From: Syntrophorhabdaceae bacterium
GTDB lineage: Bacteria > Desulfobacterota > Syntrophorhabdia > Syntrophorhabdales > Syntrophorhabdaceae
Length of the DNA: 49,084 nucleotides
NCBI GenBank assembly: GCA_035541755.1
Contig: DATKMQ010000040.1
Span: 1 to 49,084, forward strand
Direction: 5' to 3'
Part shown: positions 287-19,177 of the stretch, piece by piece
Position numbering within the stretch: the stretch's first letter is position 1
How the letters are laid out: the number at the start of each line of letters is the position of its first letter
Notes under the pieces: model-generated
What the model was told of the DNA's origin: nothing
The model's input: the letters and a program-made list of their open reading frames with translations, nothing else
Database searches by the model: none
Program-made: the position numbers and the translations under genes

Positions 287-360
287 AGGCCAGTAGCTCT
301 AACGGATAGAGCACCGGACTCCAAATCCGGGTGTTGGGGGTTCGAATCCCTCCTGGCCTG
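287..360 (+). tRNA. tRNA-Trp (anticodon CCA)
   Basis: A full cloverleaf can be folded by eye. The acceptor stem AGGCCAG (287-293) pairs with CTGGCCT (353-359), with G360 as discriminator. The anticodon arm is CCGGA-CTCCAAA-TCCGG with anticodon CCA. The T arm is GGGGG-TTCGAAT-CCCTC. The 3' CCA is not encoded, since AAT follows. A tRNA-Trp between rpmG and secE is a familiar arrangement in bacteria. Confidence 0.97.
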
Positions 361-17706: not shown

Positions 17707-18239
17707 TCAAGACCATATTTTCTGGATTCGGCGGCCAGGGCGTTCTATCCATGGGCACGACGCTCGCCACCGCCGCCATGCTTGAAGGCAAGTACGTTAC
17801 ATATTTGCCCTCCTATGGCGTCGAGGTGAGAGGGGGCACGGCCAATTGCACCGTGGTTGTGGCCGATGAGGAGATCGCGTCTCCGGTGGCTTCCGAACCC
17901 GAGTTTGTCGTTGCGATGAACCAGCCGTCGTTCGCCAGGTTTCAGAGCATCCTTCAGGCGGGAGGACTTCTCTGCGCGAATTCATCTCTCGTGAACACCG
18001 AATCAGCGAGGTCCGATATAGAGATACTGTCAATCCCGACAAGTGAGCTTGCCGAAAAGCTGGGAACTATCAAGGTCGCGAACATGATCATGCTGGGCGC
18101 CTTGATCAGGGCGAGCAGCATGATCTCGTACCAGGCCATCATCAAGAACCTCAACGAGATATTAGGTGAAGGCAAGGCCAAGCTCATCAAGCTCAACAAA
18201 GAGGCCCTGGAACTGGGCTACAATTATGTAAAGGAGTAA
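17700..18239 (+). CDS. 2-oxoacid:ferredoxin oxidoreductase, gamma subunit
   Basis: This 179-residue subunit belongs to the gamma domain family. The start IFSGFGGQGVLSMGTTLATA and SYGVEVRGGTANCTVVVAD are diagnostic. It completes a ferredoxin-alpha-beta-gamma set in one operon. The ATG at 17700 overlaps the beta stop codon. The ACT-domain gene follows five bases later. Substrate specificity cannot be read from this subunit. Confidence 0.93.
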   Translation: MLIKTIFSGFGGQGVLSMGTTLATAAMLEGKYVTYLPSYGVEVRGGTANCTVVVADEEIASPVASEPEFVVAMNQPSFARFQSILQAGGLLCANSSLVNTESARSDIEILSIPTSELAEKLGTIKVANMIMLGALIRASSMISYQAIIKNLNEILGEGKAKLIKLNKEALELGYNYVKE

Positions 18240-18244
18240 GGCGC

Positions 18245-18673
18245 ATGGTGATCAAACAGATATCGGTGAGCCTTGACAACGTACCGGGGGCTTTCTCGCG
18301 GATCAGCGAGCTTTTGGGCCGGGAAGGGGTCAACATCAGGGCCATCTCCGTGGCAGACACCTCCGACATCAGCACGGTCCGCTTTGTCGTCGATGATCCG
18401 GAAAAAGCGCTCAATATTCTTAAAGGGAACGGCTATAACCCGAAAGTAACGGACGTGCTCGCCGTGGAGACACCGGACCATCCGGGCGGGGTAAACGCCG
18501 TGCTCAAGCCTCTTATGAATGCCGGCATCAATGTTCATTACCTCTATCCTCATCTCGGAAGAGTGAACGACAATGCCATTGTAATCCTCGGTGTAGACAG
18601 AACCGACGAGGCGGAGCGTGTGCTTCAACAAAACTGGGTACACACGCTCGGCAAGGAAGCATACACACTTTAA
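18245..18673 (+). CDS. tandem ACT-domain protein
   Basis: This 142-residue protein consists of two ACT domains (about residues 1-70 and 71-140). The first opens with IKQISVSLDNVPGAFSRISE and the second contains DHPGGVNAVLKPLMNAGINV. ACT domains bind amino acids and usually regulate enzymes. No catalytic domain is attached. It is the last gene of the oxidoreductase operon, so it may report branched-chain or aromatic amino-acid level to that enzyme or its regulation. AAGGAGTAAGGCGC precedes the ATG. Confidence 0.88.
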   Translation: MVIKQISVSLDNVPGAFSRISELLGREGVNIRAISVADTSDISTVRFVVDDPEKALNILKGNGYNPKVTDVLAVETPDHPGGVNAVLKPLMNAGINVHYLYPHLGRVNDNAIVILGVDRTDEAERVLQQNWVHTLGKEAYTL

Positions 18674-18709
18674 CAGTCGAATTCTCTTCAATCGCATTAT
18701 GTTTTTTTG

Positions 18710-18891
18710 TGAGCGGTCAAACGCGTGTTCGGGAACCGCATCTGCGGCGGTCTGCTTCGCCATGCGCTGCTCGACGTATGCATATACGCCTGCGCGCGAG
18801 CATGGCTTGCAGCCCATCCACATCTGCTTCTTCCACTCCACGCCTTCGGCCACTCCACCCGCGACCCTCTGCTAGGTCGCAGAGTTCGCGG
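18710..18891. other. inverted-repeat-rich intergenic stretch after the ACT gene
   Basis: The gene-free region 18674-19187 holds many short hairpins. Here they include CCGC-ATCT-GCGG (18736-18747), CGTAT-GCAT-ATACG (18775-18788), ATGGCT-TGC-AGCC (18802-18814) and a strong composite CCGCGA..CTCTGC-TAGGTC-GCAGAG..TCGCGG (18859-18891). CCACTCCA is directly repeated at 18833 and 18850. Open frames here lack ribosome binding sites and family resemblance. It may be a structured RNA or a multicopy palindromic element; I cannot tell which. Confidence 0.45.
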
Positions 18892-18999
18892 ATACTACGT
18901 CTGAATCTACAATTGGTTTGGGCTTTCGCCTTCCAGTCTGCGTTAATATGCGGGGTAAGTTACTTCCGCCGAAGAAGCCGAAAAGAGATCTTTATATCA

Positions 19000-19090
19000 T
19001 GGACGTCCGTAGGACGGGGTACGAGCGTCCAGCACTTGAGGCCGGAAGCCCGGCGCTGCACTTTTTCAGGCCGCGAAAAGCGGTGCGGCC
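19000..19090. other. second block of GC-rich hairpins before ffh
   Basis: TGGACG (19000-19005) pairs with CGTCCA (19026-19031). GCCGG-AAGC-CCGGC (19041-19054) is followed by CACTTTTT, so it may end the oxidoreductase operon. GGCCGC (19069-19074) pairs with GCGGCC (19085-19090), with an alternative CCGC/GCGG inside. It was checked for the SRP RNA because ffh is next, but the conserved SRP loop bases are absent. Confidence 0.45.
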
Positions 19091-19098
19091 CCCACAGG

Positions 19099-19145
19099 TT
19101 AAGTGCTTCTGGCGATTTGATCTTTAAATCGCCAAAAGCACTTAA
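19099..19145. repeat. 47-base near-perfect inverted repeat upstream of ffh
   Basis: TTAAGTGCTT (19099-19108) and GGCGATTT (19111-19118) pair with AAATCGCC (19126-19133) and AAGCACTTAA (19136-19145). This forms a stem of about 20 pairs with a single C-A mismatch and a seven-base loop. No U-run follows on the + strand. It ends three bases before the candidate ffh -35 box, so it could be an operator, a transcription stop or the end of a small repeat element. Confidence 0.7.
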
Positions 19146-19148
19146 TAA

Positions 19149-19177
19149 TTGACTATTTATGCTATTTCCATTAAACT
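19149..19177 (+). promoter_or_regulatory. candidate ffh promoter
   Basis: TTGACT (19149-19154), a 17-base spacer and TAAACT (19172-19177) fit a sigma-70 promoter. Transcription would begin around 19184, only about four bases before the ffh ATG at 19188, giving a nearly leaderless message. No Shine-Dalgarno sequence is present before that ATG, which fits. Confidence 0.5.

What the first reader, a model, noticed from the sequence alone, without database searches (positions are those of the whole stretch)
18674..19148. Long gene-free stretch packed with hairpins before ffh
About 470 bases contain at least eight inverted repeats, from short GC stems to a 47-base near-perfect one (19099-19145), plus a direct repeat of CCACTCCA. 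Such density exceeds what ordinary spacers show. It may be a structured non-coding RNA, or one or two copies of a palindromic repeat family. It is not the SRP RNA.
Basis: partly seen in the sequence, partly recalled or inferred. Interest (0 to 1): 0.5.

Follow-up and report, generated by a model that had tools for sequence, protein, structure and literature searches.

The report
Mobile RNA hairpin repeat near ffh
The gene-free stretch before ffh holds one copy of a scattered, jumping-type DNA repeat whose RNA folds into one long, carefully preserved hairpin; such repeats are a known kind of thing in bacteria, but this family is in no RNA library searched here and what its RNA does is unknown.

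Summary
The stretch is real but composite. Its left part (18700-18919) is one copy of a dispersed structured element encoded on the MINUS strand: a short hairpin (18856-18894), then a ~147-nt hairpin (18710-18855) with conserved inner motifs. A covariance model finds 17 distinct places in the own genome, 56 in a relative, and hits in 7 of 39 family and 11 of 46 order genomes. Covariation is strong (37 of 42 pairs change on both sides in 79 copies), and all 20 copies tested fold better on the minus strand. In one related genome (G004) intact copies are 360-471-bp MITEs with 16-bp terminal inverted repeats; 3 of 13 have exact 8-bp target duplications. The window copy lacks these ends. Close copies break pairs fairly often, so constraint on single insertions looks weak. 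The right part (18920-19148) is single copy. It includes the 47-base palindrome, which is not seen before ffh in 29 relatives' loci and abuts a conserved ffh promoter. No Rfam family matches; a looser sister repeat is spread over the phylum and resembles published Geobacter "predicted short RNA elements". Best reading: a non-autonomous, MITE-like mobile hairpin RNA (compare Correia/ERIC/BOX), not a dedicated ffh regulator. Mover and RNA function are unproven.

The parts
18700..18919 (-). Approximate extent of the dispersed element copy (RNA read on the minus strand)
   Evidence: blastn copies in own genome cover query 27-246; a search with another copy gives 16 places in the own genome; flank alignment
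18710..18855 (-). Main ~147-nt hairpin of the RNA
   Evidence: Covariance model R1, 144.4 bits (this copy is one of the 20 the model was built from); covariation
18856..18894 (-). 5' hairpin of the RNA; in other copies its sequence varies but looks paired by eye
   Evidence: Fold of 18700-18919 minus; flanks of 64 copies printed
18810..18826 (-). Conserved inner motif, 5' side (CAGATGTGGATGGGCTG on the minus strand)
   Evidence: Alignments
18739..18755 (-). Conserved inner motif, 3' side (GCAGACCGCCGCAGATG on the minus strand); by eye it can face 18810-18826 with tandem G-A mismatches
   Evidence: Alignments; the G-A pairing is read by eye, not tested
18773..18790 (-). Apical hairpin (GGCGTATATGCATACGTC), shared in form with the wider phylum repeat
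   Evidence: Fold; relatives
18920..19098 (.). Intergenic sequence without a second copy in the genome, no better folded than shuffles
19099..19145 (.). 47-base palindrome, no second copy in the genome, not seen upstream of ffh in 29 relatives' loci; function unknown
19149..19177 (+). Likely ffh promoter TTGACT-17-TAAACT
   Evidence: TTGACTAT stands shortly before the ffh ATG in all 30 loci printed, own included

Best explanation
18700-18919 is one insertion of a non-autonomous, MITE-like dispersed element whose conserved part is a structured RNA read from the minus strand. SHOWN: many copies at unrelated places, patchy distribution, strand-specific RNA covariation and, in the related genome G004, terminal inverted repeats with some 8-bp target duplications. 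INFERRED: a transposase acting in trans on the DNA ends spreads it (now or in the past). When a copy is transcribed (its own or a host transcript) the RNA folds into two consecutive hairpins, the large one with a conserved inner core. That fold is selected in the spreading lineage, most likely because it shapes the fate of transcripts carrying it (attenuation, or RNase III-type processing or protection, as reported for Correia/ERIC). Single insertions such as the window copy are only weakly constrained and need have no role for ffh.
For: Dispersed copies: 10 and 16 blastn places in the own genome; 21 CM matches there, of which 4 re-read a listed copy on its other strand, so 17 places. Relatives: 8 of 60 by blastn, own included; 7 of 39 in the family, G004 with 57 matches, 56 listed at distinct places; 11 of 46 in the order. 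Covariation: 22 of 33 pairs with double changes in an unfitted MAFFT alignment of 20 copies; on 79 CM-fitted copies 37 of 42 pairs, 91.7% of cells paired against 78.4% shuffled and 30-44% slid. RNA strand: 20 of 20 copies have a lower z on the minus strand. G-U against A-C cells on the minus strand: 76:7 on minus-predicted pairs, 17:10 on plus-predicted pairs, 14:3 on pairs shared by both (unfitted); 418:58 fitted, or 189:51 without pairs whose commonest form is a wobble. MITE in G004: 40 TIR sites within 1 mismatch against 1 for the reversed pattern; of 13 TIR-bounded elements, exact 8-bp repeats at the ends of L102, L104 and L154, shifted or shorter repeats in 5, none found in 5; internally deleted derivatives of 250 and 143 bp. 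Weak constraint: 19 nearest same-genome pairs under 8% apart differ at paired sites by 24 kept and 29 broken single changes, 28% kept expected.
Against: No transposase with these ends was found (12 single-TIR places read). TIRs are clear only in G004, and there not in all copies: of 38, 21 have a 5' end and 16 a 3' end within 4 mismatches. Elsewhere the ends are at chance level but for one 5' end in G015 (L127), one 3' end in G001 (L122) and a weak one in G011 (L116); the window copy has neither. So mobility of the window's subfamily is inferred from dispersal. Among close copies 6 double changes keep a pair and none breaks one, which speaks for some constraint on single copies. No transcription data. 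In G004, 29 of 38 examined copies lie sense upstream of the next gene, 26 of these 29 within 51-97 nt of its start (home-made gene caller, copies partly chosen by TIR), which could mean a real regulatory role there.
Confidence: 0.62

Rival explanations
1. A host-recruited regulatory RNA: a cis-acting 5'-leader element (attenuator, mRNA stabiliser or riboswitch-like) or a trans-acting sRNA, present in many loci because it controls a regulon.
For: Conserved inner core and covariation. In G004, 29 of 38 copies are sense to the downstream gene and 26 of these 29 lie 51-97 nt from its start; most intact G004 elements end just before ribosome-binding-site-like sequence, read by eye. 6 double changes kept and 0 broken among close copies.
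Against: The window copy is antisense to both neighbours (36 nt after the upstream stop). Downstream gene sense:antisense is G000 6:5, G001 4:2, G011 4:6, G015 1:3, G019 1:1, so no clear bias outside G004. No match in 32 of 39 genomes of the same family. Single changes between close copies break pairs more often than not (29 of 53).
Confidence: 0.17
2. A DNA-level palindrome (REP/RAYT-type, attC-like or protein-binding cruciform); the arms stay complementary through DNA recognition or quasi-palindrome correction by template switching.
For: Long inverted repeat; arms vary but stay complementary; 10 copies' palindromes are also recognised, weakly, on the wrong strand.
Against: Wobble asymmetry and fold z favour one strand; template switching would not leave G-U on one strand. 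Y1 transposase (PF01797) has no match in G004, the genome richest in copies. The conserved inner motifs are not a short REP stem. attC was not tested.
Confidence: 0.1
3. RNA-dependent mobility: the RNA itself is part of the transposition machinery (bridge-RNA, omega-RNA, retron or SINE-like).
For: The RNA core is shared across genera while the G004 ends are not recognisable in most copies elsewhere. Structure is kept in the deep lineage, less clearly between recent copies.
Against: No associated recombinase, nuclease or reverse transcriptase was identified; apart from Y1 transposase none was searched for genome-wide. No Rfam match (that Rfam holds HEARO is recalled). G004 insertions look like ordinary DNA transposition with TIR and 8-bp TSD.
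Confidence: 0.08
4. Remnant of a protein-coding sequence (minus-strand ORF 18224-18853, 209 aa).
For: An open frame exists across part of the element.
Against: Matches of the same element vary in length by 1 or 2 nt (for example 144, 145, 146, 147, 148), and changes preserve base pairs. The frame was not tested by protein search.
Confidence: 0.02

Closest known systems
Correia (NEMIS), ERIC and BOX-type MITE-like hairpin repeats
   Same: Short dispersed non-autonomous elements that form stable RNA hairpins, sit near genes and can be modular; Correia- and ERIC-containing transcripts are reported to be affected through RNase III or RNase E (PMC10969869, passages seen); BOX modular, transcribed, structured and judged probably parasitic (PMC3049150, abstract and passages seen).
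   Different: Hosts differ; sequences were not compared here. In this family the RNA core recurs in lineages where the G004 ends are not recognisable. No RNase cleavage has been shown here.
Geobacter metallireducens 'predicted short RNA elements' (24 copies, Gmet_R1005 family)
   Same: Intergenic, multicopy, central palindrome GRCGTAGCGCTGCTACGCC (PMC2700814, passages seen). Exact matches occur in 12 of 395 phylum genomes; in 8 of 13 places read the palindrome sits at the apex of a hairpin of similar layout, and L184 joins it to the CATCTG/CATCTGG motifs of the wider phylum repeat.
   Different: Arms and inner motifs differ from the window family; L176, L177 and L187 carry the palindrome in other surroundings. 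Homology is by layout and one intermediate, not proven. The published alignment (a supplement) was not read.
Chunjie MITE of Geobacter uraniireducens
   Same: A 235-bp MITE with many copies in the same broad group (named in PMC10969869, passages seen).

Membership tests
MITE | Under ~500 bp, no transposase gene, many copies | tested here: met
   Copies in own genome and relatives; 11 TIR-bounded G004 elements with the core span 360-471 bp
MITE | Terminal inverted repeats and target-site duplications | tested here: inconclusive
   Met in G004 (TIR; exact 8-bp TSD in 3 of 13 elements); not found for the window copy or the other 11 G000 copies examined
MITE | A parent insertion sequence with matching ends | tested here: inconclusive
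   None among 12 single-TIR places read; transposases were not searched genome-wide
Correia/ERIC/BOX families | Sequence membership in that particular family | not tested
   No consensus of these families was compared; only the way of working is likened
Correia/ERIC-like transcript processing | RNase III or RNase E cleavage of the element in mRNA | not testable with these tools
   needs RNA experiments
Rfam families incl. SRP RNA | Score at or above the family's gathering cut-off | tested here: not met
   window; 10 other loci, no match at E up to 1
REP/RAYT | Associated Y1 transposase in genomes rich in copies | tested here: not met
   G004 has 57 CM matches and 0 PF01797 matches; the other 6 genomes with the element have 1 to 7
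Geobacter predicted short RNA family | Central palindrome GRCGTAGCGCTGCTACGCC | tested here: not met
   0 exact matches in G000, G004, G008, G011, G015, G019; related layout only
Riboswitch or leader regulator | Consistently 5' of functionally related genes, sense orientation | tested here: not met
   Window copy antisense to both neighbours; bias only in G004. Gene functions were not tested

The most novel reading that the evidence does not exclude
The RNA, not the DNA ends, is the unit of selection: a bacterial mobile RNA module whose fold is needed for its own spread (RNA-dependent or SINE-like), and which has been carried by different transposon ends in different genera.
Probability: 0.1. 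Interest if true: 0.85.

Novelty: new variant of a known kind. Interest (0 to 1): 0.45.

Why it matters
Many bacterial hairpin repeats are thought of as DNA palindromes. This family shows strong, strand-specific RNA covariation over about 40 pairs, kept across genera although the DNA ends seen in one genome are not recognisable elsewhere. That makes a testable question of whether a mobile repeat's RNA is selected for spreading. It also gives a covariance model for elements that the Rfam searches here did not recognise and that could be mistaken for regulatory RNAs or small ORFs in this phylum.

Tried and rejected
Rfam at gathering cut-off and at relaxed E-value: below-threshold microRNA- and scaRNA-like hits only, and a tRNA elsewhere in the window. 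RAYT/IS200-type mobilisation: Y1 transposase has no match in G004. Autonomous element sharing the TIR: none seen in 12 single-TIR places. Viral-contig scans with two motif patterns: 0 and 0. Empty-site comparison at ffh: not possible, since none of the other 29 ffh loci (about 1.5 kb upstream or less) has the same upstream ORF. The 47-base palindrome: no counterpart seen in the up to 160 nt before ffh, no second copy within 3 mismatches per arm beyond the reversed-pattern control level. Literature: a 17-base motif of the sister repeat, 0 papers; Geobacter multicopy elements, 9 papers (passages of three seen); a search with Syntrophorhabdus, repeat, noncoding RNA and miniature inverted-repeat, 187 papers, of which the 8 listed are on eukaryotes. 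In one search, 10 of 74 CM matches were weak reads of a listed copy on its other strand; I left them out of the copy lists, and one search used a stricter E-value so that A5 has none. Counts still include such reads.

Full report
WHAT IS THERE. The window is contig C40 of a 3.85-Mb draft genome in 180 contigs. Blast within the genome splits the stretch: 18700-18919 recurs, 18910-19148 does not.

THE REPEAT. Searches with the window stretch and with a second copy gave 10 and 16 places in the own genome. Relatives carry it too: 8 of 60 genomes, own included, by blastn. Aligned copies show outer arms that vary in sequence yet remain complementary, and conserved inner motifs. RNAalifold on unfitted MAFFT alignments of 20 copies gave 24 pairs (16 with double changes) on the plus strand and 33 pairs (22 with double changes) on the minus strand. 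Each of the 20 copies has the lower fold z on the minus strand.

COVARIANCE MODEL. R1 (147 positions, 42 pairs; built from 20 copies, the window's among them) found 7 of 39 genomes of the family: 57 matches in G004, 31 in G011, 21 in G000, 20 in G001, 16 in G019, 5 in G015 and 1 in G008. Some matches re-read a copy on its other strand (4 of the 21 in G000); for G004, 56 distinct places are listed. In the order it found 11 of 46, adding all 4 genomes of family f2 and none of the 3 of f3. On 79 copies 37 of 42 pairs show changes on both sides, 91.7% of cells pair (shuffled 78.4%, slid 30-44%), and 0 of 500 shuffles reach the observed values. That alignment was fitted to the model, and related sequences can beat shuffles without structure, so the unfitted result and the slid control matter more. 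G-U exceeds A-C 418 to 58 on the minus strand, or 189 to 51 when pairs whose commonest form is a wobble are left out (fitted). Unfitted it is 76 to 7 on minus-predicted pairs, 17 to 10 on plus-predicted pairs and 14 to 3 on pairs shared by both; on the shared pairs 11 copies have more G-U, 2 more A-C and 7 tie.

MOBILITY. In G004 the RNA lies in a larger element. Of 13 TIR-bounded elements examined, 11 hold the core (360-471 bp) and 2 have lost most or all of it (250 and 143 bp). Ends resemble GGTATTGTCAAAAGTT and its complement. Exact 8-bp direct repeats flank L102, L104 and L154; shorter or shifted repeats were found for L142, L143, L150, L155 and L159, none for L108, L109, L151, L152 and L153. 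The TIR has 40 matches within 1 mismatch in G004 (reversed-pattern control 1), 3 in G015 and none in G000, G001 or G011. With a looser test (at most 4 mismatches near the copy) 21 of 38 G004 copies show a 5' end and 16 of 38 a 3' end. Outside G004 only L127 (G015), L122 (G001) and L116 (G011) pass at one end, and the mean over the 12 G000 copies, the window's included, is at shuffled level. So the RNA core is common while these ends are not. The L122 and L116 matches leave open that the ends were once shared and have decayed. Y1 transposase is absent from G004 and no parent element was seen in 12 single-TIR places.

CONTEXT. With a home-made gene caller, 38 G004 copies (those in fetched loci, some chosen by their TIR, not all matches) have a sense downstream gene in 29 cases, 26 of them 51-97 nt away, and an antisense one in 9. 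Elsewhere sense:antisense is G000 6:5, G001 4:2, G011 4:6, G015 1:3, G019 1:1. The window copy is antisense to both neighbours.

SELECTION ON SINGLE COPIES. In 19 nearest same-genome pairs under 8% apart, paired sites show 24 pair-keeping and 29 pair-breaking single changes, 6 double changes that keep the pair and none that breaks it. About 28% of single changes are expected to keep a pair with a transition weight of 2; a stronger transition bias would raise that. At 8-20% divergence, double changes are 75 kept and 12 broken. So constraint on recent single insertions is weak rather than shown absent, while deeper comparisons are rich in kept pairs. This fits selection on a spreading lineage better than a set of individually conserved regulators, but does not exclude the latter in G004.

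WIDER KIN. A phylum sample gave 28 of 395 genomes, 6 of them in the window's family. Matches outside the order score 44.4 bits or less. One locus from each of 12 such genomes was read: they share the CATCTG/CAGATGG motifs, with small variants in L166, L167 and L169, and the apical hairpin form. The central palindrome published for a Geobacter RNA family occurs in 12 of 395 genomes, up to 26 times (G392), with reversed-pattern matches in 1 genome. Of 13 places read, 8 have Geobacter-type arms of similar layout, L184 is intermediate with the wider phylum repeat, L186 is a variant, and L176, L177 and L187 differ. One of the 8 stretches found by the motif scan of named genomes is a contig labelled Chitinivibrionia, where the match is cut by the contig's end.

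THE RIGHT PART. 18920-19098 has no second copy and is not better folded than shuffles. The 47-base palindrome is far beyond chance (0 of 200 shuffles) but has no second copy and no counterpart in the up to 160 nt before ffh in 29 other loci. It directly precedes TTGACT-17-TAAACT, whose TTGACTAT is kept before ffh in all 30 loci printed. Its role is unexplained.

JUDGEMENT. The finding is a real RNA-bearing family of the class of MITE-like hairpin repeats. Its being a dispersed RNA family is shown. Mobility is shown in a related genome and inferred here. The effect of the RNA is inferred only. Comparisons with Correia, ERIC and BOX rest on passages of PMC10969869 and PMC3049150; the Geobacter families on passages of PMC2700814, PMC2996986 and PMC3543383.

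Noticed in passing
window 19149-19177: A conserved promoter-like TTGACTAT element stands shortly before the ffh ATG in all 30 loci printed (own included).
   Followed up: partly
L026:6656-6878, L027:4762-4983, L033:437-660, L106:3095-3318, L158:1407-1631, L156:3377-3597: Some copies in two genera (G000 and G004) carry a similar ~75-nt insert at the apex of the hairpin (a palindrome around ACCCACG...CACGTGGGTGG or a close variant), as if the apex were a socket for a second module.
   Followed up: no
L102:8466-8650: A copy with an exact internal duplication within the 3' arm (ATCGCAAGGCGAAGCAGACCGCCGCAGATCAATATCC twice).
   Followed up: no
L142:1576-1825 and L143:1745-1887: Internally deleted G004 elements that keep the TIRs but have lost most or all of the RNA core, again just before ribosome-binding-site-like sequences.
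   Followed up: partly
L122 and L116, 22-40 nt past the 3' end of the main hairpin: TIR-like 3' ends in G001 and G011 (2 and 4 mismatches), a hint that the ends seen in G004 may once have been shared.
   Followed up: partly
L058:1-122: A strong but truncated match (84.4 bits) on a short contig labelled Chitinivibrionia; possible mis-binning or transfer.
   Followed up: no
L176-L187 (G392, G106, G321, G140 and others): The repeat with the published Geobacter central palindrome reaches 26 exact matches in one genome (G392).
   Followed up: partly
window 287-360: A tRNA gene, the only Rfam match at gathering cut-off in the window.
   Followed up: no
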